Shown here piece after piece: positions 2,090 through 61,398 of a stretch of DNA of 64,000 bases. Numbering within the stretch: the stretch's first letter is position 1; each line of letters starts with the position of its first letter. Under the pieces are notes generated by a model that was given only the letters and a program-made list of their open reading frames with translations, searched no databases and had not been told where the DNA came from. Source of the stretch: Chloroflexota bacterium (GTDB lineage Bacteria; Chloroflexota; Dehalococcoidia; Tepidiformales; Tepidiformaceae); NCBI GenBank assembly GCA_026710655.1, contig JAPOQN010000007.1, forward strand, positions 1-64,000. Direction: 5' to 3'. A program made the position numbers and the translations under genes.

Positions 2090-2101
2090 GCTTCGACTGT
2101 A
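2090..2101 (-). promoter_or_regulatory. putative leaderless -10 element of gcvT
   Basis: On the minus strand TACAGT occupies 2101-2096, followed by six bases and the gcvT ATG. Transcription would start at or next to the A of the start codon. No convincing -35 and no Shine-Dalgarno sequence is visible. Confidence 0.55.
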
Positions 2102-2160
2102 CCCACGCCTCGCTCCGCAAGCTACTGTCTCGGTAAAGGGGTCTGTGCCGGTCCCCGGTC

Positions 2161-3033
2161 CTACTGGAAGACGACGGTCTTGTTGTCGTGCACGAGGACG
2201 CGGTCCTCAATGTGCCAGCGTACGGCTCGCGCCAGCACCTGCCGCTCCAGCTCCCGCCCCACCCGCATCAGGTCGGCGCGCGTGTCCCGGTGCGTCACGC
2301 GCAGCACGTCCTGTTCGATGATCGGCCCAGCATCCAGCTCCGCGGTGGCGTAGTGCGCCGTCGCCCCGATGATCTTCACCCCGCGCTCTTCCGCCTGCCC
2401 GTACGGATCGGCCCCCGCGAAGGCGGGCAGGAACGAGTGGTGAATGTTGATGATCTGCTGCGGGTACGCATCTAGGAAGGTCGGCGTCAGGATCTGCATG
2501 TAGCGAGCCAGCACGACCAGGTCGACGCGCCCGCACAGCAGCTCCAGCATCTCCTTCTCCTGCTCGACCTTCGTCTCGCGGGTGACCGGCAGGTGCTCGA
2601 ACGGCACGCTGAACCGCTCCGCCAGCGGCCGCAGGATCTCTCGGTTCGAGATCACCATGACGACGTCGGCCGCCAGTTCCTCCGTCCGCGCGCGCCATAG
2701 CAGGTCGAGCACGCAATTGGGCTCCCGCGTGCCCAGGATGGCGATTCGCGGGCGATTGGCGCTGTAGGAGACGTGCCAGTCCATCGCGAAACGGGCGGCA
2801 ACCTCCTCGCCAAAGCCCTCCGCGATCGCCGTCGCCGACCCGTCCAGGCCGGCGATGTTGTACTCGACCCGCAGGAAGAAGCGAGGGTCCTCTCCCCCTG
2901 TCGAGTGCTGGTCGCCACGGACCATGTTTGCGCCGTGGCGGTCCAGGTACTGCGAAACGGCGGCGACGATGCCGGGTTGGTCCGGGCACTGCACCAGCAG
3001 CCTCGCCGTGCCTTCGGTAGGAGTGTCAATCAT
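2161..3033 (-). CDS. purU: formyltetrahydrofolate deformylase
   Basis: 290 residues. Hydrolyses 10-formyl-THF to formate and THF, balancing one-carbon units; it sits directly upstream of the glycine cleavage genes, which make methylene-THF. Residues about 10-90 form an ACT domain (CPDQPGIVAAVSQYL). The C-terminal formyltransferase fold holds the catalytic Asn-His pair in INIHHSFLPAF and the Asp of ELDAGPIIEQDV. Preceded by TATCAT exactly 6 bases before the ATG and no Shine-Dalgarno sequence, suggesting a leaderless operon mRNA. Confidence 0.95.
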   Translation of the reverse strand: MIDTPTEGTARLLVQCPDQPGIVAAVSQYLDRHGANMVRGDQHSTGGEDPRFFLRVEYNIAGLDGSATAIAEGFGEEVAARFAMDWHVSYSANRPRIAILGTREPNCVLDLLWRARTEELAADVVMVISNREILRPLAERFSVPFEHLPVTRETKVEQEKEMLELLCGRVDLVVLARYMQILTPTFLDAYPQQIINIHHSFLPAFAGADPYGQAEERGVKIIGATAHYATAELDAGPIIEQDVLRVTHRDTRADLMRVGRELERQVLARAVRWHIEDRVLVHDNKTVVFQ

Positions 3034-3045
3034 GCCCGGATGATA
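3034..3045 (-). promoter_or_regulatory. putative leaderless -10 element of the purU-gcv operon
   Basis: TATCAT at 3045-3040 on the minus strand, then CCGGGC, then ATG. This matches the window-wide TANNNT-N6/7-start pattern. No clear -35 at 16-19 bases. Confidence 0.6.
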
Positions 3046-3093
3046 CGGCCTGAGACTCGTACGGCGTGACGCATGTGTGGCATGCCTACGCGT

Positions 3094-12555: not shown

Positions 12556-12615
12556 CCGACCCGATGGCCGCCGCCCGCAGCCGCTAACCAGGCGTTCGCG
12601 TAGCATCGCCTCGCG

Positions 12616-13398
12616 ATGCCCCGCCGCATCCTCCTCAGTAACGACGACGGCTACGAATCGCCCGGACTCTGGGCGCTGGCCCGCGCCTGCACGTCCCTCG
12701 GCTGCGAGGTTACCGTGGTCGCCCCCGAGAAGAACCAGAGCGCCGTGGGCGGCAGCCTCACCCTCCGCCAGGAGCTCAACTGGACCCGCATCGAGGATCC
12801 GCCCGTCCCCGGCGTCGACGCCTGGTACGTCAACGGTTCGCCCGCCTCCGCCGTCATCGTCGGCCTCAACGGCGTCCTCGACGAGGAACCCGACCTGCTC
12901 GTTTCCGGCATCAACCGGGGCGCGAACATCGGCAACGACCTCACCGCCAGCGGCACCGTCGGCGCCGCCCTCCAGAGCCACTACCGCGGCATCACCTCGC
13001 TCGCCATCTCCTACGCGATGGACCCTCGCGCCGAGGTCGACTGGGACACTGCCGAGCGCGTCGCCGCCATCTTCTGCCGCGAGGAGATCGAGGGCCGCCT
13101 GCCCAAGTCCGTCTTCCTCAACGTCAACATCCCCCTCGTCCCCTTCGAGGAGATCAAGGGCATCCTCGTCACCCGTGTCGCCCGGCGCGGCTACTTCCAC
13201 CTGGAAGTCCAGGGCGAGACGAAGGGCATCCTCACCCGCGGCCCCTTTGAGCCCCCCCCCCTCGACCCGCCCCCCGGCACCGACATCTGGGCGATCATGC
13301 ACAAGTACGTCAGCGTCAGCCCGCTCCAGGCCAACTTCACCGACCACCACGTCATCGACGCCCTCGGCCAGCGCTTCAACGCCGCCTGGAGCGAATAA
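12616..13398 (+). CDS. surE: 5'/3'-nucleotidase SurE
   Basis: 260 residues. Metal-dependent nucleoside monophosphatase. The N-terminal ILLSNDDGY (D10, D11), the Ser of APEKNQSAVGGS and the Asn of SGINRGANIGND give the SurE metal site. The C-terminus carries a proline-rich segment (PPPLDPPPGT). TAGCAT lies nine bases before the ATG without a Shine-Dalgarno sequence, a slightly loose version of the leaderless pattern. Usually assigned to nucleotide salvage and stationary-phase survival. Confidence 0.95.
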   Translation: MPRRILLSNDDGYESPGLWALARACTSLGCEVTVVAPEKNQSAVGGSLTLRQELNWTRIEDPPVPGVDAWYVNGSPASAVIVGLNGVLDEEPDLLVSGINRGANIGNDLTASGTVGAALQSHYRGITSLAISYAMDPRAEVDWDTAERVAAIFCREEIEGRLPKSVFLNVNIPLVPFEEIKGILVTRVARRGYFHLEVQGETKGILTRGPFEPPPLDPPPGTDIWAIMHKYVSVSPLQANFTDHHVIDALGQRFNAAWSE

Positions 13399-14248: not shown

Positions 14249-14260
14249 TAGAGTGCGGCC
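14249..14260 (+). promoter_or_regulatory. putative leaderless -10 element of ruvC
   Basis: TAGAGT at 14249-14254 followed by six bases and ATG at 14261. No Shine-Dalgarno sequence or clear -35. Confidence 0.5.
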
Positions 14261-14746
14261 ATGCGCATTGCTGGCATCGATCCCGGCCTGAACGCCACCG
14301 GCTACGGCATCGTCGACATCGATGGCGACGAGTGCCGCCACGTCGCCCACGGCGTCGTCCGCACCCGTTCTGCCGACAGCCTCGCCCGGCGCCTCGTCCT
14401 CATCCGCGACGGCCTGCGCAAGGCCCTCGCCCAGTGGTCACCCGAGGTTGGCGCCGTCGAGGCCTCCTTCGTCGGCTCGAACGCGCGCTCCGCGCTCGCT
14501 CTCGGCCACGCCCGCGCCGCCGCCATCCTCGCCCTCGCCGACTCCGGCCTCGAAGTGCACGAGTACGCCCCCGCCGTCATCAAGACCCAGGTGGGCGGCT
14601 ACGGACAGAGTGACAAGGTGCAGATAGCCAAGATGGTGGCCATCGAACTGGGCCTGCCCGAACCGCCCAGCCCCTCCGATGCCGCCGACGCCCTCGCTGT
14701 CGCCATCACCCACTGGGCGCACACGCGCCTGGACGGCCGGATCTAG
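14261..14746 (+). CDS. ruvC: Holliday junction resolvase RuvC
   Basis: 161 residues. Endonuclease that nicks Holliday junctions symmetrically after RuvAB branch migration. The four acidic catalytic residues are visible: D7 (IAGIDPGLNATG), E67 (VEASF), D140 and D143 (SDAADALAVA). ruvA is 8.4 kb away and no ruvB is present in the window. The stop codon overlaps that of the convergent split-barrel gene (CTAG, 14743-14746). Confidence 0.97.
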   Translation: MRIAGIDPGLNATGYGIVDIDGDECRHVAHGVVRTRSADSLARRLVLIRDGLRKALAQWSPEVGAVEASFVGSNARSALALGHARAAAILALADSGLEVHEYAPAVIKTQVGGYGQSDKVQIAKMVAIELGLPEPPSPSDAADALAVAITHWAHTRLDGRI

Positions 14747-15284: not shown

Positions 15285-17402
<2,118 letters not shown>

Positions 17403-17415
17403 GAGCGCCAGTGTA
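17403..17415 (-). promoter_or_regulatory. putative leaderless -10 element of uvrB
   Basis: Minus-strand TACACT at 17415-17410, seven bases before ATG. The extended sequence CGCTGCTACACT also precedes purQ. No LexA-like palindrome seen. Confidence 0.6.
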
Positions 17416-21648: not shown

Positions 21649-22277
21649 ACTGCCTTCCCCAGCGACCGCCGCGCGCGCAGGTACGCCTCCAGGAACCCCC
21701 GCGCCACCGAGCACAGGTCGGCGATCAGGTCCGCCATCGCCACCGTCGCTTCCTCGCCCGCTGCCAGCCGCACCTCCAGCCGCTCCCCCTCCCCGTTCGT
21801 CCCCGTGATCGCGAGTTGGTCGACTGGCGCCGGCATCGCCAGCGAATCGGCCGCCGTGGTCGCCTCGATCAGCGCAGGGAGCCACTCCGGCACGGGCAGG
21901 CCCCGCAGCTGGGCCGCGCTCTCCACCGCCCCTTCGTCGAGCGCCAGCCGCCGCACGACCCCCTCCGGCTCCGCCGTCGCCGCCAGCTGCGCCAGCGCGA
22001 CCCACGCCTCCGCCCCCGGCAACGGCCCCCGCAGCGACTCCGCCACCGAGAACCGTCGGTCGTCCAGCGCCTCGAAGACGGCGGTCAGCCGCAGCGCCGC
22101 CTCCACGAGCTGTCCCGCCAGCATCCCCACCAGCGCAGGGCGCTCATACGGGGGGCAGAAGGCGAGCGAGCGCAGCGCCGTGTCGGACACCATCTGGGGC
22201 TTGCTCAGGACCGAGCGCTCGTACTCCTCCAGGAACCGGAGTTCTGTCAGCCGCTCGATGTAGGGCGCTTCCGACAT
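21645..22277 (-). CDS. conserved-looking helical protein of unknown function
   Basis: 210 residues, mostly predicted alpha-helix with no membrane segment or signal peptide and no motif I recognise. It lies nine bases after mutM and is translationally coupled (GTGA) to the P1 peptidase, suggesting joint function with that peptidase. The ATG is preceded by TAGAAT-N6, though the TAG of that hexamer is also the mutM stop codon. Confidence 0.72.
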   Translation of the reverse strand: MSEAPYIERLTELRFLEEYERSVLSKPQMVSDTALRSLAFCPPYERPALVGMLAGQLVEAALRLTAVFEALDDRRFSVAESLRGPLPGAEAWVALAQLAATAEPEGVVRRLALDEGAVESAAQLRGLPVPEWLPALIEATTAADSLAMPAPVDQLAITGTNGEGERLEVRLAAGEEATVAMADLIADLCSVARGFLEAYLRARRSLGKAV

Positions 22278-22289
22278 GCGGCCATTCTA
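22278..22289 (-). promoter_or_regulatory. possible leaderless -10 overlapping the mutM stop codon
   Basis: TAGAAT at 22289-22284 on the minus strand, six bases before the ATG at 22277. Its first three bases are the mutM TAG stop, so the match is partly forced by coding sequence. Confidence 0.35.
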
Positions 22290-23135
22290 CGTCCCGGCAG
22301 ACCGCTGCCTGCGCGGCCTCCGCTGGCACCGCGGGCAGAAGTGCGTCCCCCGGCCCCCCACCACCGACCGCGCGATCTCCGTCCCGCACGTGTAGCACGG
22401 CTTGCCGTCGCGCCGGAACACCTGCACGTACATGTGCTGCCGCCCGGGGTCGCCCTGCGCGTCGACGTAGTCGCTGAAGCTCGCCCCGCGGTTCTCGATG
22501 CCGCGCTCCAGCACCTCGCGGCAGGCCACGCGCAGCCGCGAGACCGCCCCCCTCGACACCTCCCCCGCCGCCGTGTCCGGCCGAATTCGCGCCTGGAACA
22601 GCGCCTCGTCCACGTAGATGTTCCCCAGCCCTGCCACCCGCCGCTGGTCGAGCAGGACCGCCTTCACCGGCGCCGTCCGCCCCGCCAGCAGCTTCCGCAG
22701 GAAGGCTGCCGTGAACGCCTCGTCCAGCGGCTCCGGCCCCAGCTTCCCCACCACTTCCGCCGCGTCCTCGACGATGTCCCACGTACCGAACTTGCGCAGG
22801 TCGCTCCATCGCAGGTCGTGCCCGTCATCGAGCGAGAGGCGTCCCCGCTCGTACTCGATCGCCGGCTCGGCCGCTCCCCGCCGCACCAGCCGCCCCGTCA
22901 TACGCAGGTGAGTCACGAACGCGCGCCCGTCGTCCATGCCGAAGAGCAGGTACTTGCCCCGCCGTCCCAGCGAGACGAACCGCCGCCCCACCAGCCCCGC
23001 CCGCAGCGCATCGATCGGCAGGCCCGTCAGCAGGTCGATCGTGCCGGGGTCGACCTCCACCCCCGCCACCGTCCGCCCCACCACGAGCGGCTCCAGGTCT
23101 CGCCTGATCGTCTCGACTTCGGGCAGCTCCGGCAC
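22287..23135 (-). CDS. mutM: formamidopyrimidine-DNA glycosylase
   Basis: 282 residues from GTG 23135. Bifunctional glycosylase/AP lyase removing 8-oxoguanine. The catalytic N-terminal proline follows the initiator (PELPEVETIRRDL), the H2TH region contains GLGNIYVDEALF, and the C-terminal zinc finger has CYTCG and FCPRC. TAGGCT seven bases before the GTG with no Shine-Dalgarno suggests leaderless transcription, divergent from ruvA 55 bases away. Confidence 0.97.
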   Translation of the reverse strand: MPELPEVETIRRDLEPLVVGRTVAGVEVDPGTIDLLTGLPIDALRAGLVGRRFVSLGRRGKYLLFGMDDGRAFVTHLRMTGRLVRRGAAEPAIEYERGRLSLDDGHDLRWSDLRKFGTWDIVEDAAEVVGKLGPEPLDEAFTAAFLRKLLAGRTAPVKAVLLDQRRVAGLGNIYVDEALFQARIRPDTAAGEVSRGAVSRLRVACREVLERGIENRGASFSDYVDAQGDPGRQHMYVQVFRRDGKPCYTCGTEIARSVVGGRGTHFCPRCQRRPRRQRSAGT

Positions 23136-23148
23136 GGTTCTCAGCCTA
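23136..23148 (-). promoter_or_regulatory. putative leaderless -10 element of mutM
   Basis: Minus-strand TAGGCT at 23148-23143, then seven bases, then GTG. Shares a 55-base divergent intergenic region with the ruvA element. Confidence 0.5.
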
Positions 23149-23178: not shown

Positions 23179-23190
23179 TAAGATCGCCCC
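23179..23190 (+). promoter_or_regulatory. putative leaderless -10 element of ruvA
   Basis: TAAGAT at 23179-23184, then CGCCCC, then GTG at 23191. Confidence 0.55.
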
Positions 23191-23844
23191 GTGATCACCC
23201 ACCTTTCCGGGCAGCTCACCCATGCCGACGTCGGCGAGCTGAGCGTCGAAGTCGATGTCTCGGGTGTCCGCTACGAGGTGCTCGTCCCCGCCTTCCTCTG
23301 GCCCGAGATCCAGGAGGCGGCCGACTCCTCGCCGGAAGGCGAGCCCGGCCCCCCCATCGCCCTTCACGTCCTCTACCACGCCACCTCCAACCAGCCCGTG
23401 CCCCTCCTCGTTGGCTTTCTCCGCCGCCCCGAGCGCGACTTCTTCCGCAAGTTCACCAGTGTTGAGGGGCTGGGCCCGACCAAGGCGGTCAAGGCTATGA
23501 CCGTCTCGGTCAGCACCATCGCCCGCGCTATCGAGCAGGAGGACCAGGCCGCCCTTGTCCGCCTCCCCGGCATCGGCGCGCGCGTCGCCGGCAAGATCGT
23601 CGCCACCCTGCGGGGCAAGGTCGTCGCCGAAGCTGCCCTCCAGGACGGCGCCATCGAGAACCCCGTCGACCTCGAGAGCCTCAAGCGCGACCGCGTCGCC
23701 CTCGATGCCGCCGAGGCCGTCGCCGCCCTCGGCTACAACCGCTCCGAGGCCCGCCGCTGGGTCGACGACGCCCTCGCCGGCGACCCCGACATCGCTACCG
23801 TCGAGGAGCTGACGCTGGCCGTCCTCCGTGCGCGTGGCGCCTGA
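23191..23844 (+). CDS. ruvA: Holliday junction branch migration protein RuvA
   Basis: 217 residues, GTG start. Tetrameric junction-binding partner of RuvB. N-terminal OB-fold (GQLTHADVGELSVEVDVSGVRYEV) and two helix-hairpin-helix motifs, VEGLGPTKAVKAM and LPGIGARVAGKIVATL. The C-terminal domain III that regulates RuvB ends the chain. ruvB is not adjacent and not in the window. Confidence 0.95.
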   Translation: MITHLSGQLTHADVGELSVEVDVSGVRYEVLVPAFLWPEIQEAADSSPEGEPGPPIALHVLYHATSNQPVPLLVGFLRRPERDFFRKFTSVEGLGPTKAVKAMTVSVSTIARAIEQEDQAALVRLPGIGARVAGKIVATLRGKVVAEAALQDGAIENPVDLESLKRDRVALDAAEAVAALGYNRSEARRWVDDALAGDPDIATVEELTLAVLRARGA

Positions 23845-23878: not shown

Positions 23879-23890
23879 TAGGATGCCCCC
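23879..23890 (+). promoter_or_regulatory. putative leaderless -10 element of the DsbA-like gene
   Basis: TAGGAT at 23879-23884, then six bases, then GTG at 23891. No Shine-Dalgarno sequence. Confidence 0.55.
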
Positions 23891-24859
23891 GTGACGCAGC
23901 CGCCCACCGATTCCGAGGAAGCGCCCTTCGAGCCGCCCGAGGCACCCCCCGAGCCGGCGCCGGCGTCCCATCAGGACATAAGGCCTGCCCGTCCCCCCGC
24001 CTGGCCTTACTTCCTCACGCCGATCGCCGTCCTGCTTGGCGCCGCTGCCATCGTCATCACCCTCGTCTTGCTGGATGACGACCCCCAGCCGGAACCCATC
24101 GGTCCCGCCCTCGAATCCCTCTCCCGCTCGGTCGAGTCCCTGTCCGAAGCTGCCGAGTCGTTGTCGGAGTCGGCAGCCCAGCCGCCCGCCGCCCAGGAGC
24201 CGGCCGAACCTGCCGCCGCCCCCAGGGCCCCCACCACCCTCCGCGAAGCCGTCACCAGCTATGCCGTGGCGCTCAACCTCGACGTCGCCCGCTTCGACGA
24301 GTGCCTCAGCGCCCCGGCCACCTACGAGGCGGTCGCCGAGCAGGCCCAGCGGGCCATCGACCTCGGCTTGAACGGCACGCCTTCCTTCTTCATCAACAAC
24401 AAGTTCATCTCCGGCGCCCAGCCCACGGAGATCTTCACCGAGGTCATCGCCGCGGAGTTGAACGGGAGCCCAACCTCCATCGATGAGTATTCGGAAGCGG
24501 TGCAGGTTCTCGCGCAGCGCGACCCGCCTGCCTTCATCATCGTCGCCGAACGCCCCGACATCAGCGGCGCCGCCATCGAGGGTAACCCCGACGCCCCCGT
24601 CGTCCTCATCGAGTACAGCGACTTCCAGTGCCCCTTCTGCCAGCGCTGGTTCTACAGCTCGCTGCCGGAGATCAGGGAGCTCGTCGGCGAGAACGTCGCC
24701 CTCGCGTTCGTACACTTCCCCCTCACCCAACTCCACCCCAACGCCGCTACCGTCCATGTCGCCGCCCAGTGCGCCGGCGAACAGGACAAGTTCTGGGAGA
24801 TGCACGACCTTCTCTTCCAGCAGCAGAACCAGTGGGCGCAGCTCCCCAACGTCAACTAG
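23891..24859 (+). CDS. membrane-anchored DsbA-like thiol oxidoreductase with permuted domain order
   Basis: 322 residues. A cytosolic Pro/Glu-rich N-tail (1-37), one transmembrane helix (about 39-61), then an Ala/Pro/Glu linker. Residues 116-191 match the C-terminal half of a DsbA domain, with the cis-proline strand GTPSFFINN (P164) and SGAQPTEIF. Residues 232-322 match the N-terminal half, with EYSDFQCPFCQRW (active-site C247-P-F-C250) and KFWEMHDLLF. The normal order is reversed. The frame is open throughout and ends just where a DsbA helical insertion would end. Likely function: extracytoplasmic disulfide formation or exchange. Alternative: two degenerate half-domains. Confidence 0.88.
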   Translation: MTQPPTDSEEAPFEPPEAPPEPAPASHQDIRPARPPAWPYFLTPIAVLLGAAAIVITLVLLDDDPQPEPIGPALESLSRSVESLSEAAESLSESAAQPPAAQEPAEPAAAPRAPTTLREAVTSYAVALNLDVARFDECLSAPATYEAVAEQAQRAIDLGLNGTPSFFINNKFISGAQPTEIFTEVIAAELNGSPTSIDEYSEAVQVLAQRDPPAFIIVAERPDISGAAIEGNPDAPVVLIEYSDFQCPFCQRWFYSSLPEIRELVGENVALAFVHFPLTQLHPNAATVHVAAQCAGEQDKFWEMHDLLFQQQNQWAQLPNVN

Positions 24860-27749: not shown

Positions 27750-29960
27750 CTACAGCCCCAGCCCCGACTCCCATGCCTCCCGAACCTCGGTGAGGTCCGC
27801 CTCGACCGGTCCGTAGCGAAGCACGCTCTCCTCCGTCGTGGCGCCCAGCCGCGTGGCCGCCACCCCCAGCTCCTCCGCCAGCGCCACCAGTCCCTCCCCC
27901 GCCTCGGGACGCGCGCTCACCACGATGCGTCCCTGCCCCTCCCCGAACAGGGCTGCGTCGACGCGCCCCTCCACCTCGACCTCTCCCGCGAAGCCGTACC
28001 CGCCGAGCAGGCAGCACTCCGCCAGCGCGACCGCGAGGCCGCCGTCGCTGCAGTCGTGCGCGCTCAACAGCAGACCGGCGTCGTTCGCGCCCAGCACGAG
28101 GTCGTGTAGCCGCCCCTCCGCTGCGAGGTCGACCGTGGGCGTGCCGATGACCGCGCCGTGTACGGCCTCCAGGTACTCGCTCCCTGCCAGCGTCCGCGCC
28201 GTCTGCTCGACCGTTCCGCCCAGCAGCCACACTTCCGCCCCCGCCCGCTCGAAGGCCGCCCCCAGGTGCGCGTGCACGTTCTCCAGCACCCCCAGCATCC
28301 CGATGACCGGTGTCGGTGAGACCGGTGCCCCGCCGCTCTCGTTGTAGAGGCTCACGTTGCCGCTCACGACCGGCGTCCCGAACGCCTCGCAGGCCGCGGA
28401 GATGCCGTCCACCGCCCCGGAGAGGGTCGCGTACACCTCAAGGTTCTCGGGGGCCCCGAAATTGAGGCAATCCGTCACCGCAACCGGCCGCGCCCCCGTG
28501 CAGACCACGTTGCGCGCCGCCTCCGCCACCGCGATCGCCCCCCCGTTGTGCGCGTCGAGCTGGCAGTAGCGACCGTTCCCGTCGGTCGCCACGGCGATAC
28601 CTCGAGTCGTGCCCGGCACGCGCAGCACGGCTGCGTCGCCCCCCGGCGCCACCACCGTGTTCGCCAGCACTTGGTGGTCGTACTGGCGGAAAACCTCGCG
28701 CTTGCTCGCGAGGTTCGGCCGCCCGATCAGCGCCACCAGCGCCTCCGTCGCCGCCTCTGCCTTCAGGTCCGGGAACGCCCCCGGATTCGCCTGGCTGCGC
28801 GCCAGCGCCTCCACGCTGCGACGCCCGTCGCGCGTGTACGCCGGCGCCTCCGTCGCCACCTCGACCGGCACCCGCCCAACCTCCACCCCGTCCTCCCGCA
28901 GCACCACCTCGTCCCCGTCCGTCACCTGACCGATCTCGATGCAATCCACCTCCCAGCGCTCGAACAACGCCTCCACGTCCGCCACGTGCTCGCGTTTCGC
29001 GATCACGAGCATCCGCTCCTGGCTCTCCGAGAGCATGACCTCGTACGGCGTCATCCCCGATTCGCGCCGCGGCACGCAATCCAGGTCGAGCACCGCTCCC
29101 GAGTCCCCCCGCGCGCAACACTCGAGCACCGAGCTGGTCAGGCCCGCCGCCCCCAGGTCCTGCAGCCCCACGATCCAGTCCCGGTGCTCCGAGGCGAGTT
29201 CGTGGCAGGCCTCCATCAGCATCTTTTCCAGGAACGGGTTGCCCACCTGCACCGCCGGACGCATCTCCTCGAAGCGCGCCTCTGGATCGGTGCGGCTCGC
29301 CAGCCCGCTTGCCCCGTGAATGCCGTCCCGGCCCGTATCCGCCCCCACCAGCAGCAGGGCGTTCCCCTCGCCGCTCGCGTTCGCGCTCAGGATGCCGTCT
29401 GCCCGCACCAGCCCCACGCACATCGCGTTCACGAGCGGGTTGCCGTTGTATGACCCCCCGAACACCACCTCCCCCCCCACGGTCGGGATCCCGAGGCAGT
29501 TCCCGTACCCCCCGATACCGCCCACCACCCCCTCGAACAGGTAGCGGTTGTTCCCCTCGTCCAGCGGACCGAAGCGCAGCGAGTCCAGCAGCGCGATCGG
29601 GTACGCCCCCATCGCGAAGATGTCCCGAACGATCCCCCCCACGCCCGTCGCCGCCCCCTCGTACGGCTCGATCGCCGAGGGGTGGTTGTGCGACTCGACC
29701 TTCATCACCACCGCCCAGCCGTCCCCGATGTCGATCGCGCCCGCGTTTTCCTCACCCACGCGCGTCAGCACGCGGTCGCCGCCGCTCGGGAAACGGCGCA
29801 GCAGCGGGCGGCTGTTCTTGTAGCCGCAGTGCTCGCTCCACAGCGAGCCGAACATCCCCAGCTCGACCTCGTTCGGTTCCCGCCCCAGCCGCCCCACGAG
29901 CAGGTCGTATTCATCGCGACTCAGCGCGACTGCGTCCAGTGCCTCCTGCTCGACCGCCAC
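27750..29960 (-). CDS. purL: phosphoribosylformylglycinamidine synthase subunit PurL
   Basis: 736 residues, normal for the small PurL form that works with PurQ and PurS. ATP-dependent conversion of FGAR to FGAM in purine synthesis. Landmarks: LWSEHCGYKNSRPLL (H44), VESHNHPSAIEPYEGAATGVGG, QDLGAAGLTSS and HDCSDGGLAVALAE. Start GTG at 29960 with TAGCAT six bases upstream and no Shine-Dalgarno. purQ lies 1.65 kb upstream, separated by three membrane-protein genes; no purS was found. Confidence 0.97.
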   Translation of the reverse strand: MAVEQEALDAVALSRDEYDLLVGRLGREPNEVELGMFGSLWSEHCGYKNSRPLLRRFPSGGDRVLTRVGEENAGAIDIGDGWAVVMKVESHNHPSAIEPYEGAATGVGGIVRDIFAMGAYPIALLDSLRFGPLDEGNNRYLFEGVVGGIGGYGNCLGIPTVGGEVVFGGSYNGNPLVNAMCVGLVRADGILSANASGEGNALLLVGADTGRDGIHGASGLASRTDPEARFEEMRPAVQVGNPFLEKMLMEACHELASEHRDWIVGLQDLGAAGLTSSVLECCARGDSGAVLDLDCVPRRESGMTPYEVMLSESQERMLVIAKREHVADVEALFERWEVDCIEIGQVTDGDEVVLREDGVEVGRVPVEVATEAPAYTRDGRRSVEALARSQANPGAFPDLKAEAATEALVALIGRPNLASKREVFRQYDHQVLANTVVAPGGDAAVLRVPGTTRGIAVATDGNGRYCQLDAHNGGAIAVAEAARNVVCTGARPVAVTDCLNFGAPENLEVYATLSGAVDGISAACEAFGTPVVSGNVSLYNESGGAPVSPTPVIGMLGVLENVHAHLGAAFERAGAEVWLLGGTVEQTARTLAGSEYLEAVHGAVIGTPTVDLAAEGRLHDLVLGANDAGLLLSAHDCSDGGLAVALAECCLLGGYGFAGEVEVEGRVDAALFGEGQGRIVVSARPEAGEGLVALAEELGVAATRLGATTEESVLRYGPVEADLTEVREAWESGLGL

Positions 29961-29972
29961 GCCCCGATGCTA
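29961..29972 (-). promoter_or_regulatory. putative leaderless -10 element of purL
   Basis: Minus-strand TAGCAT at 29972-29967, then CGGGGC, then GTG at 29960. Confidence 0.55.
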
Positions 29973-31609: not shown

Positions 31610-32311
31610 TCAGACCACGGCTCCGGCCGCGACCTCGACCAGCGATTGCCAGATGCGGTTGCCGTCGGCCCCGCCCGTCAGCTCTTCGCCGGCGCGCTCG
31701 GGGTGCGGCATCATCCCCACTACGTTCCCTGCCTCGTTGCGGATGCCCGCGATGTTGCGGGCGCTCCCGTTCGGATTCGCGTCCGGCGTGACTTCGCCGT
31801 GATCGTCGCAGTAGCGGAACACGACGCGTCCCTCGCGCTCCAGCTCGTCGAGCGTCGCGCGGTCGGCCTGGTAGTTGCCCTCTCCGTGGCTGATGGGGAT
31901 GCGCAGCCCCTCGCCCTCGCCGATGCCCGCCGTCCACGGCGATCCGCCGCCCTCGCGCCGCAGGTGCGTCCACTCGCAGCGGAAGCGCAGGCTGCGGTTG
32001 CGGATGAGCGCTCCCGGCAGCAGACCGCTCTCGCACAGCACCTGGAAGCCGTTGCAGATGCCGATCACCGGCATCCCGTCCTCCGCCGCCCGCACCACCT
32101 CCTCCATGATCGGCGAGAAGCGCGCGATCGCCCCGCAACGCAGGTAGTCGCCGTAGGAGAAGCCACCTGGCAGCACCACGGCGTCGAACTCCGCCAGCGA
32201 GGTCTCCTGGTGCCACACGATCTCCGCTTCCTGCCCGAGCACGTTCACGAGCACGTGCTCGGTATCGCGGTCGCTCCAGGTTCCCGGGAAACGCACGATG
32301 GCGAAACGCAT
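31610..32311 (-). CDS. purQ: phosphoribosylformylglycinamidine synthase, glutaminase subunit PurQ
   Basis: 233 residues from ATG 32311; the frame is open further upstream but the conserved RFAIVRFPGTWSDRD starts here. Class I glutamine amidotransferase that supplies ammonia to PurL: nucleophile in VIGICNGFQVL and the His-Glu pair in MMPHPERA. TACACT lies seven bases before the ATG within CGCTGCTACACT, shared exactly with uvrB. Confidence 0.97.
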   Translation of the reverse strand: MRFAIVRFPGTWSDRDTEHVLVNVLGQEAEIVWHQETSLAEFDAVVLPGGFSYGDYLRCGAIARFSPIMEEVVRAAEDGMPVIGICNGFQVLCESGLLPGALIRNRSLRFRCEWTHLRREGGGSPWTAGIGEGEGLRIPISHGEGNYQADRATLDELEREGRVVFRYCDDHGEVTPDANPNGSARNIAGIRNEAGNVVGMMPHPERAGEELTGGADGNRIWQSLVEVAAGAVV

Positions 32312-32324
32312 CCTCAGTAGTGTA
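32312..32324 (-). promoter_or_regulatory. putative leaderless -10 element of purQ
   Basis: Minus-strand TACACT at 32324-32319, then seven bases (ACTGAGG), then ATG. GAGG is directly adjacent to the ATG, too close to be a normal ribosome site. Confidence 0.6.
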
Positions 32325-42532: not shown

Positions 42533-42790
42533 CTACTCAGGGCGAAGCGCCGCCAGCCGGCGCTTCGTGCGGTCCGCCCGTCCCGTGGGGATGGCGCCCT
42601 TCCGCGCCGCCCGGTCCAGGACCGAGAAGGCCTCGCTGAGCGCTGCCCCGAAGGCGTCGCTGTCGCCGGTGTCCGCCGCCTCGCGTGCGGCGCGCACGGC
42701 CGAGCGCGACTCCGAGCGGGTCGCGCGGTGGCGCCCCCGCCGCTTGAGCGACTGACGCCAGCGCTTCGTTGCTGATCGCGTAGTTGCCAT
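42533..42790 (-). CDS. rpsT: 30S ribosomal protein bS20
   Basis: 85 residues from ATG 42790. Basic helical bundle: ATTRSATKRWRQSLKRRGRHRATRSESRS then a long helix ending in TKRRLAALRPE. bS20 binds 16S rRNA helix 44. TACGAT lies eight bases upstream of the ATG with no Shine-Dalgarno, a loose version of the leaderless pattern. Divergent from rho. Confidence 0.9.
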   Translation of the reverse strand: MATTRSATKRWRQSLKRRGRHRATRSESRSAVRAAREAADTGDSDAFGAALSEAFSVLDRAARKGAIPTGRADRTKRRLAALRPE

Positions 42791-42841
42791 GGACGCCGAT
42801 CGTAGGCGCGTGTCGGGCTCCGCGCAAAGCCGGCGCCGTAC

Positions 42842-47795: not shown

Positions 47796-48561
47796 CCGCC
47801 GCCCGCACCGCCTGTGGGGGAATCGTTTCCACGTGCCTGGCGATCACCACATCCCGGTGGAGGTAGTAACCAGCCCCGCCCGGGGTCCGCTCCACAAAGT
47901 CCCCGCCGCAGGTGTACAGCGTGATCCACTCCTCGTCGGGGGGGCGCAGCAACTCGGGGTCCCTTGCCTCGTGCGGCCAGATGATGTCGTGCATGGGGAT
48001 GTCTTCCCGCGTGTAGCGGCGCTGGAAGAACACTTCGTAGACGTACTCGCGACCGTCATCCATCACCACGTTGATCAGGTCGCCGTTCTGCAGCTCCGTC
48101 AGCGCGTAGAAGGGCCCGCGCTTGTCCGGCCAGTAGTCCTTGTGCGCCGCGTACAGCGAGCTCGTGCCGAACCCGGGCTTGTCGTAGATGTCGTACCAGC
48201 CGATGTTGTACCACTCGGGCACGTCGAGCTTGTTTTGTCCCGGCACCAGCCCGATCCGCTCAATCGGCGCCTCCACCCCGAGCGATGGCAGCCGCATCGC
48301 CACCACCTCGCCGTCGTACGGCTCCGGGTCGGGTGTCGCCTCGGGGGTGGCTGTGGCGTCTGGCGCGGGGATGGTGGGCTGGGGCGAGGCCGGAGCGCGG
48401 GTTGGGGCGGGTGTCGCCGTTGGGGTTGGCTCCGGTGCCGGGGTTGCTTCGGGCGTCGGTTCGGGGGCTGGCTCCGGCGTGGCGGTGCCACACGCCGTGC
48501 TCACCAGGAGCAGGACTACGCCCAGGAGGAGGAATGCCTTCGTCAGTTGCCTACCGCGCAC
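47779..48561 (-). CDS. lipoprotein sortase, copy 2
   Basis: 260 residues from GTG 48561 (GGAG six bases upstream; ATG 48600 would add 13 residues). Lipobox VSTAC (C24), a Pro/Thr/Glu/Ala stalk to about residue 80, and a sortase domain with H140, C218 (LYTCGGDF) and R236. Nearly co-linear with copy 1, so a tandem duplication. Follows the surface protein gene, which may supply the substrate. Confidence 0.9.
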   Translation of the reverse strand: MRGRQLTKAFLLLGVVLLLVSTACGTATPEPAPEPTPEATPAPEPTPTATPAPTRAPASPQPTIPAPDATATPEATPDPEPYDGEVVAMRLPSLGVEAPIERIGLVPGQNKLDVPEWYNIGWYDIYDKPGFGTSSLYAAHKDYWPDKRGPFYALTELQNGDLINVVMDDGREYVYEVFFQRRYTREDIPMHDIIWPHEARDPELLRPPDEEWITLYTCGGDFVERTPGGAGYYLHRDVVIARHVETIPPQAVRAADEDQR

Positions 48562-48625
48562 GACGATCTCCGTGCACCCCCGCAGGGTGGCCACCACCAA
48601 TGCGAAGTATACCGGGTGAGCGTTT

Positions 48626-49741
48626 CTAGCGGCGACGCTGGAGACGGTTAAGAAGATCCCTGACGGAGGTGCCCATAGAGTCGCGGATTGAGGTGCTCCG
48701 CGTGGCTGGGCCGACCCCGATAACGTACTCGGTCCTGGCAGACGTCCCTGGCGGGCGCCCCAGCCAGTAGAAGACCACGACGCCGGCCGCGGCCAGCCCC
48801 GCCACCACCGCCAGCACGATGATCACCACCAGCGCTCCATCGGTCCCGCCGTCGCTCTCTGGCTCCGTGGCTGCAGGCGCCGGGGTTTCCGCCGGCGTAG
48901 CCGCTTCCGTCGCGGCAGGCGGCTCCGTCGCTGCAGGCGCTTCCGTGGGCTCGGGCGCCTCCGTCGCAGTGGGGGCCGGCGTTGCCGTGGCAGCGGGCTC
49001 TTCGGTGGCCTCCGGCGCTTCCGTGGCTTCGGGCGTTTCTTCAGCGGCCACTTCGGTGGCGGCCGCCGCCTCTGTGGGCTCCGGCGATGCCTCGGGCTCG
49101 ACCGTTTCGGTGGTCTCCGTCGCCTCGGGGCTCTCCTCCGGCTCTTCCGGCACGGTCGTCTCCGTTGCCTCGGGGCTTTCCTCCGGCTCGACCGGCTCCT
49201 CGGCTACGGTCGTCTCCGTGCCCTCCGGCGTCTCCTCCGGCTCGACCGGCTCTTCGGGCACGGTCGTCTCCGTGCCCTCGGGTGTCTCTTCCGGCTCCGT
49301 GGGACCGGCCGGCAGCGTCAGGTTGAGCTCCTGCGGTTGGCCTCGCCAGATCCCGGTCTCCTGCGCGAACCGATCGCCGATCTTGAATCGCACCAGCGTC
49401 TCATCAGCTCCGCACCCTTCCTTCTCCTGGGCCGACAGCACGTCGACCCGGTAGTTCGTGACGGCCTCCCCGTCCTCGCCCGTACGGATGGTCTGCTGCG
49501 GTTCTTCCTGGCTGCACACCGCGTCGCCGATGTAGGCAACCACATCCAGCCCTCCCGCCACCTCGCCGTCGGGGGCGGTCACCGTGCCGAAGAACGTCGA
49601 GGGTTGGGTCGGCGGGTTCGTCTGAGCCGGCGCCGCCTCACTCGGGCCTACCGCCACTCCCACCGCCACCGCCAGGCACCCCAACAACAGCGTCAGCGGC
49701 GCGAGGGACTCCCTTGCCCATCGCCCTCGCTGTAGGCCCAT
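48626..49741 (-). CDS. secreted Pro/Glu/Thr-rich surface protein with C-terminal membrane anchor
   Basis: 371 residues. Signal peptide (hydrophobic core 14-31, cleavage near ASEAA/APAQ), a globular part with paired cysteines (AVCSQEEP, EGCGADE) to about residue 145, then about 150 residues of Pro/Glu/Thr/Ala repeats, one transmembrane helix (about 304-326) and a basic cytosolic tail ending NRLQRRR. No LPxTG-like C-terminal signal. First gene of the surface-protein/sortase unit. Start ATG with TAGGCT seven bases upstream. Confidence 0.85.
   Translation of the reverse strand: MGLQRGRWARESLAPLTLLLGCLAVAVGVAVGPSEAAPAQTNPPTQPSTFFGTVTAPDGEVAGGLDVVAYIGDAVCSQEEPQQTIRTGEDGEAVTNYRVDVLSAQEKEGCGADETLVRFKIGDRFAQETGIWRGQPQELNLTLPAGPTEPEETPEGTETTVPEEPVEPEETPEGTETTVAEEPVEPEESPEATETTVPEEPEESPEATETTETVEPEASPEPTEAAAATEVAAEETPEATEAPEATEEPAATATPAPTATEAPEPTEAPAATEPPAATEAATPAETPAPAATEPESDGGTDGALVVIIVLAVVAGLAAAGVVVFYWLGRPPGTSARTEYVIGVGPATRSTSIRDSMGTSVRDLLNRLQRRR
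49100..49298 (-). repeat. imperfect 54-base coding repeat (Pro/Glu/Thr stalk)
   Basis: At least three units encode EPEETPEGTETTVPEEPV-like 18-residue repeats (variants EPEESPEATETTV), forming the extended stalk of the surface protein. Repeat unit and borders are estimated by eye. Confidence 0.6.
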
Positions 49742-49754
49742 AGGCGCGAGCCTA
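49742..49754 (-). promoter_or_regulatory. putative leaderless -10 element of the surface-protein/sortase unit
   Basis: Minus-strand TAGGCT at 49754-49749, then CGCGCCT, then ATG at 49741. Confidence 0.5.
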
Positions 49755-55124: not shown

Positions 55125-55133
55125 AGCAGCGTC

Positions 55134-58023: not shown

Positions 58024-58035
58024 TACCCTTCGCCC
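58024..58035 (+). promoter_or_regulatory. putative leaderless -10 element of the carboxylase beta-subunit gene
   Basis: TACCCT at 58024-58029, then TCGCCC, then ATG at 58036. Confidence 0.45.
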
Positions 58036-59646
58036 ATGGCCCTCGACGACCTCCCCCTCCTCCCCACCCGTGTCGATGTCCTCGCTGAGGGCTACCGGGA
58101 GAACCGCGACGCCAACCTCGCCCTCGTCGACGACCTTCGCGCACGCCTCCAGCGCGTCGAGCAGGCCGGCGGCGAACGCTACGTCGAGCGCCACCACGGC
58201 CGCGGCAAGCTCCTCGCCCGTGAGCGCATCCAGCGCCTCATCGACCCCGATGGCGCCTTCCTCGAGTTCAGCCCCCTCGCCGCCGACGGCGTCTACGACG
58301 ACGACGTGCCCGCCGCCGGCATCGTTACGGGCATCGGGCGCGTGGCCGGGCGCGAGTGCGTCATCGTCGCCAACGACGCCACCGTGAAAGGCGGCTCCTA
58401 CTACCCCCTCACCGTGCGCAAGCACCTCCGCGCCCAGGAAATCGCCGAGCAGAACCACCTCGCCTGCATCTACCTCGTCGATTCCGGCGGCGCCTTCCTC
58501 CCCCTCCAACACGATGTCTTTCCCGACCGCGACCACTTCGGCCGCATCTTCTACAACCAGGCCCGTCTCAGCGCGAAGGGCATCTACCAGGTTGCCGCCG
58601 TCATGGGTTCCTGCACCGCCGGGGGCGCCTACGTCCCCGCTATGAGCGACGAGACCGTGATCGTGCGCGGAACCGGCACGATCTTCCTCGGCGGGCCGCC
58701 CCTGGTGAAAGCCGCGACGGGCGAGGAGACGACCGCCGAGGAGCTCGGCGGCGCCGACGTCCATACCCGCATCAGCGGCGTCGCCGACCACTTCGCCGAG
58801 GCCGACGAGGATGCCCTCCGCATCGTCCGCAGCATCGTCGCCAGCATCCCCGCCACCAAGTCCCCGCCCTGGGAGCTCGGCCCGCCCGAGCCGCCCCTCC
58901 ACGACCCGGAGGAGCTCTACGGCATCGTCCCGCCCGACTACGGCCGTACCTACGACGTGCGCGAGGTCATCGCCCGTCTCGTCGATGGCTCCCGCTTCCA
59001 CGAGTTCAAGGCGCGCTACGGCACCACCCTTGTCTGCGGCTTCGCCCGCATCACCGGCTTCCCCGTGGGGATCATCGCCAACAACGGCATCCTCTTTGGC
59101 GAGAGCGCCCTCAAGGGCGCGCACTTCGTCGAGCTCTGCGGCCAGCGCCGCGTCCCCCTCGTCTTCCTCCAGAACATCACCGGATTCATGGTCGGACGCC
59201 AGTACGAGAACGCCGGCATCGCCCGCGACGGCGCCAAGATGGTCACCGCCGTCGCCAGCGTCGCCGTCCCCAAGTTCACCGTCGTCATCGGCGGCAGCTT
59301 CGGCGCCGGCAACTACGCCATGGCGGGACGCGCCTACTCCCCCCGCCAGCTCTGGATGTGGCCCAACGCCCGCATCAGCGTGATGGGCGGCGAGCAGGCG
59401 GCCAACGTCCTCCTCCAGGTCCGCCTCGACCGCGGCGAGGAGCTGACCGAGGAGGAGCAGCGCGCCTTCATGGCTCCCACGCTCGAAACCTACGAGCGCG
59501 AAGGCTCCCCCTACTTCAGCAGCGCACGCCTCTGGGACGACGGCGTCATCGACCCCCTCGACACCCGCCGTGTCCTCTCCATGGGTATCTCCGCCGCTCT
59601 CAACGCCCCCATCCCCGAGACCGACTGGGGTGTCTTCCGCATGTAG
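58036..59646 (+). CDS. acyl-CoA carboxylase carboxyltransferase (methylcrotonyl-CoA carboxylase beta-type)
   Basis: 536 residues. Two crotonase-fold domains with acyl-CoA and carboxybiotin sites: [27 protein letters not shown] and [40 protein letters not shown]. The full set matches MCC beta rather than propionyl-CoA carboxylase, so leucine or isovalerate degradation is likely. The biotin-carrying alpha subunit lies downstream beyond the decarboxylase. Confidence 0.94.
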
Positions 59647-59824
59647 TCCCTGGTGCCCCCCGCCTCGTGTCAGCACGCTTCCTTGCTAACGCCCCGCAGA
59701 TCGCTAGATTCCCCCGGGCGCTTCTTCCGGCCGCCCGCACGGGGCGCGAGGTCTTGGTAATCTGCCCGCGACCGGGCAAAGTAGCGCTCTCCGCGTTGGA
59801 AGCGGAGGCCTGGTGGAGTTGCAT

Positions 59825-61330
59825 ATGCCTGAAGGACCGGAGAGCGACATGGCTTCCTCCCCCGGTGGAGCGCCACAGGCAGGCGCCGAGGGCTCCACGA
59901 CCAGCGAACTCCAGATGTCGCACGAGCAAATGCTCGAACTCGGGCGACAGGCCCTGGACCTCGTCGTGAACCGCATCGAGAACCTGCCCGCCGGGGAGGC
60001 TTGGGATGGCGAGTTCCGGAAGGTTCTCGAAGCCCACCTCGCCGAGGATCCCCCCGAGGGTCCCAACCCCGCCTCCGAGGTGCTGGACAGGCTCGCGCGG
60101 GACGTACTCCCCTACACCGCGCGCCTCGATCACCCTCGCTTCTTCGGCTTCATCCCCACCTCGCCCACCTGGCCCGGCATCGTCGCCGACTTCCTGGCCG
60201 CGGGCTACCTCATCAACCAGTGCACGTGGCTCGTCGCGAGCGGCCCCAGCCAGCTCGAACTCGTCGTCATCGACTGGTTCAGGCGCTGGCTCGGGTATCC
60301 CGAGGGGGCAGGCGGCCTCTTTACCAGCGGCGGCTCCGCCGCCAGTGTCGACGCCTTCGTCGCCGCCCGCGAGGCAGCTGGGAACCCCGAACGAGCCACC
60401 GTCTACATGAGCGACCAGAGCCACAGCGCTCTCCCCCGCGCCGCCGTGATCGTCGGCGTCCGGCGTGACCACATCCGTTCGGTCCCGAGCGACAGCAGCT
60501 TCCAGATCGATATGGAGGCCCTCTCCAGGGCTGTCGCCGACGACCGCGCTGCCGGCCTTCATCCCATCGCCGTCTGCGCCAATGCCGGTACCTCCAGCAC
60601 TGGCTCGGTCGACCCGCTGGAGGAACTGGCGGACTTCTGCGAAGCCGAAGGCCTGTGGCTTCACGTGGATGCCGCCTACGGCGGTTTCGCGGCGGTGACC
60701 GAGCGGGGCAAACAGCTCCTGCGTGGCATCGAACGCGCCGACTCGGTCGGGCTTGACGCGCACAAGTGGTTCTTCCAGCCCTACGAGGCCGGCTGCCTGC
60801 TGGTGAAGGATCGGGAGACGCTCAGCGACGCCTTCCAGATGGGACACGACATCCTCCAGGACACGGTATGGGGGGCCAACCACCCCAACTTCGCCGACAT
60901 CGGCCTGCAGCTGAGCCGCTCCGCCCGCGCCCTGAAGGTCTGGATGTCCGTGCAGACCTTCGGCATGGACGCCTTCCGCCGTGCCGTCGAGAGAAGCATG
61001 GAGCTCGCCGTCCGCGCCCACGACTACGTCCGTGCCAGCCCCACCCTCGAGGCCCTCAGCACGCCGACCCTCGGGATCGTGTGCTTCCGCGTCAACCCCG
61101 AAGGGAGTGCCCTTGATGCGGCGGCCCTGGAGGAGGTCAACCGGACCGTGCTTGCGCAGATGTTCTGGGACGACCCCGCCTTCATGTCCTCCACGATGCT
61201 GCACGGGACGTTCGCGCTCAGGATGTGCATCATCAACCACACCACCACCTGGGATGACGTGCGCGAGACCCTTGAGGCCGTGGAGCGATTCGGCCAGCAG
61301 GCACTCTCGAAGAGGGATGCCCCCGCCTGA
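59825..61330 (+). CDS. group II pyridoxal-dependent decarboxylase (aromatic amino acid decarboxylase-like)
   Basis: 501 residues from ATG 59825 (GGAG six bases upstream). PLP lysine K314 in LDAHKWFFQPYEAG; earlier FTSGGSAASVDAFVAAREA and YMSDQSHSALPRAA, and the His-Val-Asp-Ala-Ala-Tyr-Gly motif for the cofactor pocket. Family decarboxylates aromatic L-amino acids, glutamate or diaminobutyrate. It sits between two CoA-carboxylase subunits, an uncommon arrangement. The 178-base gap before it contains no other gene. Confidence 0.93.
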   Translation: MPEGPESDMASSPGGAPQAGAEGSTTSELQMSHEQMLELGRQALDLVVNRIENLPAGEAWDGEFRKVLEAHLAEDPPEGPNPASEVLDRLARDVLPYTARLDHPRFFGFIPTSPTWPGIVADFLAAGYLINQCTWLVASGPSQLELVVIDWFRRWLGYPEGAGGLFTSGGSAASVDAFVAAREAAGNPERATVYMSDQSHSALPRAAVIVGVRRDHIRSVPSDSSFQIDMEALSRAVADDRAAGLHPIAVCANAGTSSTGSVDPLEELADFCEAEGLWLHVDAAYGGFAAVTERGKQLLRGIERADSVGLDAHKWFFQPYEAGCLLVKDRETLSDAFQMGHDILQDTVWGANHPNFADIGLQLSRSARALKVWMSVQTFGMDAFRRAVERSMELAVRAHDYVRASPTLEALSTPTLGIVCFRVNPEGSALDAAALEEVNRTVLAQMFWDDPAFMSSTMLHGTFALRMCIINHTTTWDDVRETLEAVERFGQQALSKRDAPA

Positions 61331-61385
61331 TAGCCGGGCCCGCCCCGCTCGGGCAGGACCGGCCGGGTGACCCTCTGCCTCCCCC

Positions 61386-61398
61386 TACAATGCCGCCA
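61386..61398 (+). promoter_or_regulatory. putative leaderless -10 element of the carboxylase alpha-subunit gene
   Basis: TACAAT at 61386-61391, then seven bases, then ATG at 61399. The ATG at 61390 overlaps the hexamer, so 61399 is preferred. Confidence 0.6.

What the first reader, a model, noticed from the sequence alone, without database searches (positions are those of the whole stretch)
2090..61398. Window-wide leaderless promoter pattern TANNNT-N6/7-start codon
At least 13 genes have a TANNNT hexamer ending exactly six or seven bases before the start codon and no Shine-Dalgarno: gcvT (2101-2096), purU (3045-3040), ruvC (14249), uvrB (17415), the helical gene (22289), mutM (23148), ruvA (23179), DsbA-like (23879), purL (29972), purQ (32324), surface protein (49754), carboxylase beta (58024) and alpha (61386). 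surE (9 bases) and rpsT (8) are near matches. With A and T each near 0.16-0.17, a fixed T-A-x-x-x-T is expected in roughly 0.5% of positions, so about 1% for two spacings; 13 of roughly 30 transcription-unit starts is far above that. The spacing puts +1 on the start codon itself. uvrB and purQ share the 12 bases CGCTGCTACACT. One case (22289) is partly forced by a stop codon. Operon-internal genes instead have good Shine-Dalgarno sequences.
Basis: partly seen in the sequence, partly recalled or inferred. Interest (0 to 1): 0.82.

Follow-up and report, generated by a model that had tools for sequence, protein, structure and literature searches.

The report
Promoters sitting on start codons
In this uncultured, GC-rich Chloroflexota bacterium, roughly one gene in eight to ten has its promoter placed so close that the RNA should begin at the start codon itself; this leaderless style is well known from Deinococcus, Mycobacterium and Streptomyces, and here it is conserved among close relatives and patchily spread in another phylum.

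Summary
All 13 TANNNT hexamers lie where stated, 6 or 7 bases before a start codon. A 14th (sortase-like gene, ATG 47768) and the two near matches (surE 9, rpsT 8) were also found. In the window 14 of 65 called genes have the site; shifted spacings give 1.4 on average. In 670 kb of the same genome 61 of 614 motif-blind starts have it, against 4.2 in dinucleotide shuffles. Without gene calls, TASRMT-N5-C-ATG occurs 58 times in the genome, against 3 at spacing 4.

It looks like a sigma-70-type -10 element whose +1 is the start codon. A weak TTG box peaks 17-18 bases upstream, genes inside operons have it less often, and orthologues in a genus relative keep it: 13 of 17, against 1 of 75 without it.

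So the leaderless reading is supported, though no 5' ends are mapped. The kind is known (Zheng 2011, Cortes 2013, Zhong 2025). Added here: the lineage (Chloroflexota, class Dehalococcoidia, 68-70% GC), its level (about 10-15% of genes) and a patchy spread in the phylum (72 of 251 genomes pass a simple test).

The parts
2087..2101 (-). gcvT: TACAGT-N6-ATG (start 2089)
   Evidence: GcvT by NCBIfam
3031..3045 (-). purU: TATCAT-N6-ATG (start 3033)
   Evidence: PurU
14249..14263 (+). ruvC: TAGAGT-N6-ATG (start 14261); orthologue in G005 has TAGCGT-N7-ATG
   Evidence: RuvC
17400..17415 (-). uvrB: TACACT-N7-ATG (start 17402); TANNNT before ATG/GTG in 30 of 30 loci read from the family (28 at spacing 6/7)
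   Evidence: UvrB
22275..22289 (-). helical-protein gene: TAGAAT-N6-ATG (start 22277); its TAG is also the mutM stop codon
   Evidence: no Pfam family
23133..23148 (-). mutM: TAGGCT-N7-GTG (start 23135), divergent from ruvA
   Evidence: formamidopyrimidine glycosylase
23179..23193 (+). ruvA: TAAGAT-N6-GTG (start 23191); strict TANNNT at 6/7 in 8 of 8 genus members read, 0 of 10 other family members read
   Evidence: RuvA
23879..23893 (+). DsbA-like gene: TAGGAT-N6-GTG (start 23891)
   Evidence: DSBA/thioredoxin
29958..29972 (-). purL: TAGCAT-N6-GTG (start 29960); 17 of 18 family members read N6, 1 N8
   Evidence: PurL
32309..32324 (-). purQ: TACACT-N7-ATG (start 32311)
   Evidence: PurQ
49739..49754 (-). 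Thr/Glu/Pro-rich surface protein gene: TAGGCT-N7-ATG (start 49741)
   Evidence: no Pfam family
58024..58038 (+). carboxyltransferase subunit gene: TACCCT-N6-ATG (start 58036)
   Evidence: carboxyltransferase-type matches below cut-off
61386..61401 (+). biotin carboxylase / carrier gene: TACAAT-N7-ATG (start 61399)
   Evidence: biotin carboxylase matches below cut-off
12601..12618 (+). surE near match: TANNNT-N9-ATG (start 12616)
42788..42804 (-). rpsT near match: TACGAT-N8-ATG (start 42790)

Best explanation
These are promoters of the primary (sigma-70/RpoD-type) RNA polymerase in which the -10 element TANNNT lies so that its last T is at -7 and +1 is the first base of the start codon. The mRNA then begins with AUG or GUG and has no leader and no Shine-Dalgarno sequence. 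Such messages are most likely started by direct recognition of the 5'-terminal start codon by the initiator-tRNA-loaded ribosome, while about half of the other genes show an SD-like word. Shown here: the motif, its spacing, its genome-wide excess, its conservation and its lower frequency inside operons. Inferred: transcription start at the start codon, leaderless translation and its mechanism. Sites with 7-9 bases may give leaders of 0-3 bases.
For: Spacing peak at 6 then 7 in 617 genes with starts chosen without the motif (44 and 17 against about 3.5); 61 of 614 against a mean of 4.2 and maximum of 11 in 200 dinucleotide shuffles. Gene-call-free whole-genome count 58 at spacing 6 against 3 at spacing 4 and 5 for the pattern read backwards; looser pattern 220 at spacing 6 against 51 at spacing 3, which has the same codon phase, and 101 read backwards. 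A TTG box at 17-18 bases upstream in 14 of 182 sites, against 10 summed over 11 other spacers. C at -1 in 83% of 102 spacing-6 starts against 61.5% of 548 SD-led starts (p 1.4e-5). Same-strand genes with gap under 30: 8 of 216 against 68 of 389 other genes. Conservation (spacing 6-9): G000/G005 orthologues 13 of 17 against 1 of 75; uvrB 30 of 30 loci read, purL 18 of 18 family members read. RpoD present; anti-SD CCTCC intact in the 16S rRNA, so SD starts remain possible. The same geometry in D. radiodurans was tested by mutation and reporter (PMC12340547, part 1 of 3 of the Results and one subsection read).
Against: No RNA data for this organism. The -35 box is weak: matches of 4 or more of 6 to TTGACA are 6 and 9 at spacers 17 and 18 but also 5 at 19 and 6 at 23. 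C at -1 is also common at other starts. Genes close behind a same-strand gene have the motif less often but still above control (8 of 216 against 0.9; G005 11 of 138 against 0; G036 3 of 13 against 0), so some sites would be promoters inside apparent operons. ruvA keeps the strict motif only within the genus (0 of 10 other family members at 6/7), and purL lacks it at 6/7 in 3 of 3 class members outside the family. G000/G020 orthologue conservation is modest (6 of 15 against 6 of 51, p 0.02). SD absence at these genes is partly forced because the hexamer takes the SD place.
Confidence: 0.9

Rival explanations
1. The hexamer is a real -10 element but for many sites transcription starts a few bases upstream, giving very short leaders (1-5 bases) rather than strictly leaderless messages. 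(Not exclusive of the best explanation: it could hold for the 7-9 spacings.)
For: Spacings 7, 8 and 9 are also in excess (17, 12, 8 of 617), and the -1 C preference stands out at spacing 6 only.
Against: The mode is sharply 6, where +1 by the usual -10 geometry is the first base of the codon; spacings 0-5 hold 1, 1, 1, 0, 0 and 1 of 617.
Confidence: 0.25
2. TANNNT is a translation-enhancing element (for example an S1 or ribosome site replacing the SD), not a promoter.
For: It sits where an SD would be and excludes it (3 of 201 starts with both); it is also found, above control, at some genes close behind another.
Against: Less frequent at operon-internal genes, which also need translation signals; TTG box peaking at 17-18 bases; T, A and T kept in orthologues while the middle three bases vary; in D. 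radiodurans replacement by an SD abolished fluorescence and lowered RNA (PMC12340547).
Confidence: 0.04
3. Chance, base composition or wrongly chosen starts.
Against: Shifted spacings, dinucleotide shuffles, out-of-frame codons and gene-free whole-genome counts all give far less, and orthologues keep it.
Confidence: 0.01

Closest known systems
Leaderless '-10-motif' genes of Deinococcus-Thermus (Zheng 2011 PMC3160421, passages; Zhong 2025 PMC12340547, parts of Results; de Groot 2014, cited there, not read)
   Same: TANNNT 6-7 bp before the ORF; TACACT the commonest hexamer, there in D. radiodurans and here in 18 of 182 sites; SD genes alongside; the middle three bases free.
   Different: Share of genes about one third in D. 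radiodurans, about 10-15% here. Another phylum. No functional test here.
Leaderless transcripts of Mycobacterium tuberculosis (Cortes 2013 PMC3898074, passages read)
   Same: TANNNT -10, ATG and GTG starts both used, no or weak -35.
   Different: There mapped by 5'-end sequencing and about a quarter of genes; here sequence inference and about 10-15%. A weak TTG peak at 17-18 is seen here, none was reported there.
TA-led genes of Chloroflexi in the 953-genome survey of Zheng 2011 (passages read)
   Same: Same phylum, same signal class.
   Different: Table 2 there gives 4 of 12 Chloroflexi genomes with 4.0-5.7% and the text a TAtaaT form for medium-GC groups including Chloroflexi; here a high-GC class with the open TANNNT form and a share two to three times larger, by a different method, and whole families without it.

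Membership tests
bacterial leaderless genes with an ORF-adjacent -10 motif | TANNNT (or TATAAT-like) hexamer about 6-7 bases before the start codon, above chance genome-wide | tested here: met
   61 of 614 against 4.2 shuffled; 58 against 3
bacterial leaderless genes with an ORF-adjacent -10 motif | No SD sequence at these genes, SD elsewhere in the genome | tested here: met
   3 of 201 with both; SD-like word in 548 of 1126 other starts in three genomes; exclusion partly forced by overlap
bacterial leaderless genes with an ORF-adjacent -10 motif | More at unit starts than inside operons | tested here: met
   68 of 389 against 8 of 216 in the own genome; the 8 still exceed their control of 0.9
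bacterial leaderless genes with an ORF-adjacent -10 motif | Hexamer conserved in orthologues | tested here: met
   13 of 17 against 1 of 75 at spacing 6-9; uvrB 30 of 30, purL 18 of 18 read in the family; ruvA only in the genus
bacterial leaderless genes with an ORF-adjacent -10 motif | Transcript 5' end on the start codon | not testable with these tools
   no RNA data
sigma-70-type promoter | -35 element 16-18 bases before the -10 | tested here: inconclusive
   TTG at 17/18 in 14 of 182 sites, 10 over 11 other spacers: well placed but in a small minority
sigma-70-type promoter | Primary sigma factor encoded | tested here: met
   RpoD_Cterm TIGR02393, 391.5 bits, cut-off 354

The most novel reading that the evidence does not exclude
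Leaderless initiation in Chloroflexota is a mosaic trait that does not simply follow GC content. It is strong in high-GC Dehalococcoidia (f1, f21) and in several other families (f36, f46, f33), is densest in a family with 1.1-1.2 Mb draft genomes (f76, about 53% GC in a 28 kb sample), and shows no excess in others (f37, f39, f43, f49, f62). The phylum would then hold repeated gains or losses of this mode between relatives, usable to test what drives the switch between SD-led and leaderless starts, as may be seen for single genes (ruvA of G017 with GGAGG instead).
Probability: 0.45. Interest if true: 0.55.

Novelty: new member of a known kind. Interest (0 to 1): 0.4.

Why it matters
It extends a well-studied but taxonomically narrow mode of gene expression to an uncultured, GC-rich Chloroflexota class, at a level above the one that the 2011 survey gave for Chloroflexi (4 of 12 genomes, 4.0-5.7%). 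It has a practical side: gene finders that do not model it will misplace starts here, as the coding-only caller did for 4 of the 14 window genes. The patchy spread over one phylum offers a natural comparison for asking why lineages adopt or drop leaderless starts.

Tried and rejected
Chance and composition: rejected by shifted spacings, out-of-frame codons, dinucleotide shuffles and gene-free counts. Extended -10 (TGN) as a general feature: T at -3 is only mildly raised, 0.21, though uvrB in the genus has TGC before the hexamer. A DNA-repair bias among the window genes (ruvC, uvrB, mutM, ruvA) was not tested genome-wide. Small samples gave unclear results for single relatives: G038 2 of 46 and G074 1 of 61 by gene calls, although G074's whole-genome count is 39 against 2; G188 1 of 15. 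The samples of G047 (14 genes) and G157 (9 genes) are too small to use. With the loose pattern, the pattern read backwards is nearly as frequent in G036 (162 against 170) and more frequent in G117 (171 against 115), so that count does not confirm these two, although spacing 3 gives less (65 and 68). A column-conservation script found only 19 of the 30 uvrB loci through a loose anchor; I use for uvrB instead. Its pair part shows flanks 58% identical (140 of 240) and the middle three bases 75% (27 of 36) in 12 pairs chosen for having the motif, so T, A and T could not be compared directly with the flanks. The -1 C signal is weaker than it first looked, since all starts favour C. In the phylum survey the control (spacing 4) is in another codon phase than spacing 6; phase-matched spacings were checked on own and two relatives' stretches and with spacing 3 on 12 genomes.
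Full report
What was checked. The window is G000:C7:1-64000 of a 3.14 Mb draft genome in 71 contigs. Its GC is 66-72% by 4 kb steps, and 68.3% in 670 kb of the genome. The 16S rRNA ends in the normal anti-SD GGATCACCTCCTTTCT.

The sites. One search reads all 13 claimed sites; all are there, 8 at spacing 6 and 5 at spacing 7. The names hold: UvrB, PurL, RuvA, MutM (Fpg), PurQ, GcvT, PurU and RuvC reach NCBIfam cut-offs (RuvC by TIGR00228), and DsbA-like, SurE and two sortases are found by Pfam. The carboxylase subunits match their superfamilies below the cut-offs. The helical and surface proteins match nothing in Pfam. rpsT was missed by my caller but is real (Pfam S20), with TACGAT-N8-ATG. A 14th site at spacing 7 precedes a sortase-like gene.

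Chance in the window. I trained a simple coding-only gene caller on the own genome, which knows no start signals beyond a preference for ATG over GTG over TTG. It finds 65 genes within the window; 14 have TANNNT at 6/7 before a start it considers plausible, against a mean of 1.4 and maximum of 3 at 17 shifted spacings. With its single best starts it is 10 of 65, against a mean of 0.40 and a maximum of 3 in 1000 dinucleotide shuffles. Of the 65 genes, 46 are divergent from or at least 30 bases from the gene before; 12 of the 14 sites lie there by the caller's starts (11 if the sortase is counted from its leaderless start).

Genome level. In 670 kb (617 genes) the count by spacing is 44 at 6, 17 at 7, 12 at 8, 8 at 9, with at most 1 at each of 0-5 and about 3.5 per position at 13-30. 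In-frame ATG candidates have TANNNT at spacing 6 in 5.3% of 662, out-of-frame ATG in 0.4% of 558. GTG is used too (2.0% of 658, out-of-frame 0.4% of 802); TTG candidates give 2 of 157. Allowing alternative starts, 77 of 617 genes (12.5%; shifted control 13.2) are TANNNT-led at 6/7: 68 of 389 leading genes (control 12.4) and 8 of 216 genes less than 30 bases behind a same-strand gene (control 0.9). So genes behind another have it less often, but not never. Free of gene calls, TASRMT-N5-C-ATG occurs 58 times in the whole genome, against 3 at spacing 4 and 5 for the pattern read backwards, and TANNNT-N6-ATG 220 times, against 51 at spacing 3 and 101 read backwards.

Promoter character. Pooling 182 sites at 6/7 from three genomes (own, G005, G020), TTG occurs 7 times each at 17 and 18 bases upstream of the hexamer and 10 times in all over the other 11 spacers tested; matches of 4 or more of 6 to TTGACA are 6 and 9 at 17 and 18, but also 5 at 19 and 6 at 23. 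That is a weak -35 element in the canonical place. The commonest hexamers are TACACT, TAGGCT and TAGACT. The base before the start codon is C in 83% of 102 spacing-6 starts, 61.5% of 548 SD-led starts and 65.7% of 134 starts with TANNNT further up (p 1.4e-5 and 0.003). This fits a pyrimidine at -1 before a purine +1, but C is favoured at all starts, so it is a supporting detail only. TANNNT (spacing 6-9) and an SD-like word coincide in 3 of 201 starts, partly because they compete for the same place.

Conservation. In 92 reciprocal best pairs with a genus relative (G005), 13 of 17 genes with the motif at 6-9 keep it, while 1 of 75 genes without it has it in the relative (p 1.4e-11); one of the 13 pairs is only 27% identical and may be a paralogue. 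Shifted spacings give 0, 0 and 1 shared cases. Flanks of 12 such pairs are 58% identical (140 of 240), so three given bases would all stay in about a fifth of cases by that rate (my arithmetic), not 13 of 17. With a family relative (G020) it is 6 of 15 against 6 of 51, and G005/G020 gives 7 of 11 against 5 of 47. uvrB has TANNNT before ATG or GTG in 30 of 30 loci read, own included (the best 30 of the 59 genomes with a match gave loci; all are of the family): 11 at spacing 6, 17 at 7, one each at 9 and 10, TACACT in 25. For purL I read own and 20 of the other genomes listed: it is there in 18 of 18 family members (17 at 6, one at 8) but at 6/7 in 0 of 3 class members outside the family. For ruvA I read own and 18 of the genomes: 8 of 8 genus members have it at 6/7, 0 of 10 other family members and 0 of 1 other class member do in strict form. 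Among those ten, GATACT at 6 (two), CATACT at 8, CACAAT at 6 and CACGAT at 7 look like one-base variants, and G017 has GGAGG instead (read by eye).

Spread. Gene calls on stretches of 23 relatives show the excess in G005 (60 of 359, control 6.6), G020 (45 of 356, 5.8), G036 (13 of 57, 1.9), G055 (8 of 53, 0.8), G051 (7 of 53, 0.9) and, outside the class, G117 (5 of 60, 0.9); there is none in low-GC Dehalococcoidia G048 (8 of 82, 7.1) and G049 (6 of 56, 8.9), and no clear sign in the other samples, which are small. The whole-genome index over 251 Chloroflexota genomes passes a simple test (spacing 6 at least three times spacing 4, excess of 10 or more) in 72 of 251, and in 5 of 33 of the own class; one of these five (f14, 14 against 3) is borderline, since its family as a whole has 170 against 109. 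Per family the excess per Mb is largest in f76 (78 against 4 in 2.3 Mb), f21, f1, f36, f46 and f33, and absent in f37 (1187 against 1224), f39 (522, 488), f43 (101, 130), f49 (406, 378) and f62 (37, 39). f76 is about 53% GC in a 28 kb sample and f34 (55.5% GC in G095) shows a moderate excess (703, 326), while f62 and f61 (61% and 64% GC in G158 and G152) show none, so GC content alone does not seem to explain it. The families are numbered, not named, and contamination of drafts can blur single rows.

Known work. Zheng 2011 (PMC3160421, passages) defined TA-led leaderless genes in bacteria, TAnnnT in high-GC groups, and 4 of 12 Chloroflexi genomes at 4.0-5.7%. Cortes 2013 (PMC3898074, passages) mapped TANNNT leaderless transcripts for a quarter of M. 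tuberculosis genes. Zhong 2025 (PMC12340547, part 1 of 3 of the Results and one subsection) showed in D. radiodurans that TANNNT 6-7 bp before ORFs acts as the -10 region, with mutants and reporters, and scanned the bacterial domain by phylum in a supplementary figure that I could not see, so Chloroflexota may be in it. The StartLink paper (PMC9581028, passages) quotes 21.6% of bacterial species as predicted users of leaderless transcription. PMC10783764 (passages) lists Dehalococcoidia as an SD-using class (59%). Nakagawa 2017 (PMC5397173, passages) had 2 Chloroflexi species. Searches for leaderless with Dehalococcoidia, Chloroflexota, Chloroflexi plus TANNNT, Chloroflex plus dRNA-seq, Thermomicrobi, and Dehalococcoides (with 8 of 45 listed, 74) showed me no paper on leaderless transcription in this class; the held library lacks most subscription papers, and the original GeneMarkS-2 paper is not held.

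Verdict. The pattern is real, conserved among close relatives, and best read as leaderless sigma-70-type promoters. It is a new lineage for a known kind of gene expression.

Noticed in passing
23133-23193: mutM and ruvA diverge from start codons only 55 bases apart, and both have a TANNNT at leaderless spacing, so the two promoters interleave; the mutM hexamer (read as AGCCTA on the ruvA strand) is present in 8 of 8 genus members read (by eye).
   Followed up: partly
G188 and G226 (family f76): Two Chloroflexota draft genomes of 1.1-1.2 Mb have the highest density of strict leaderless sites among the families surveyed (37 and 41, against 2 each at spacing 4); a 28 kb sample was too small to confirm it by gene calls (1 of 15).
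   Followed up: partly
46992-49741: Two sortase-domain genes next to a Thr/Glu/Pro-rich protein with, by eye, hydrophobic stretches near both ends.
   Followed up: no
L279 (G017 ruvA upstream): In one family member ruvA has GGAGG shortly before GTG instead of the -10-like hexamer: a possible switch between leaderless and SD-led start (by eye).
   Followed up: no
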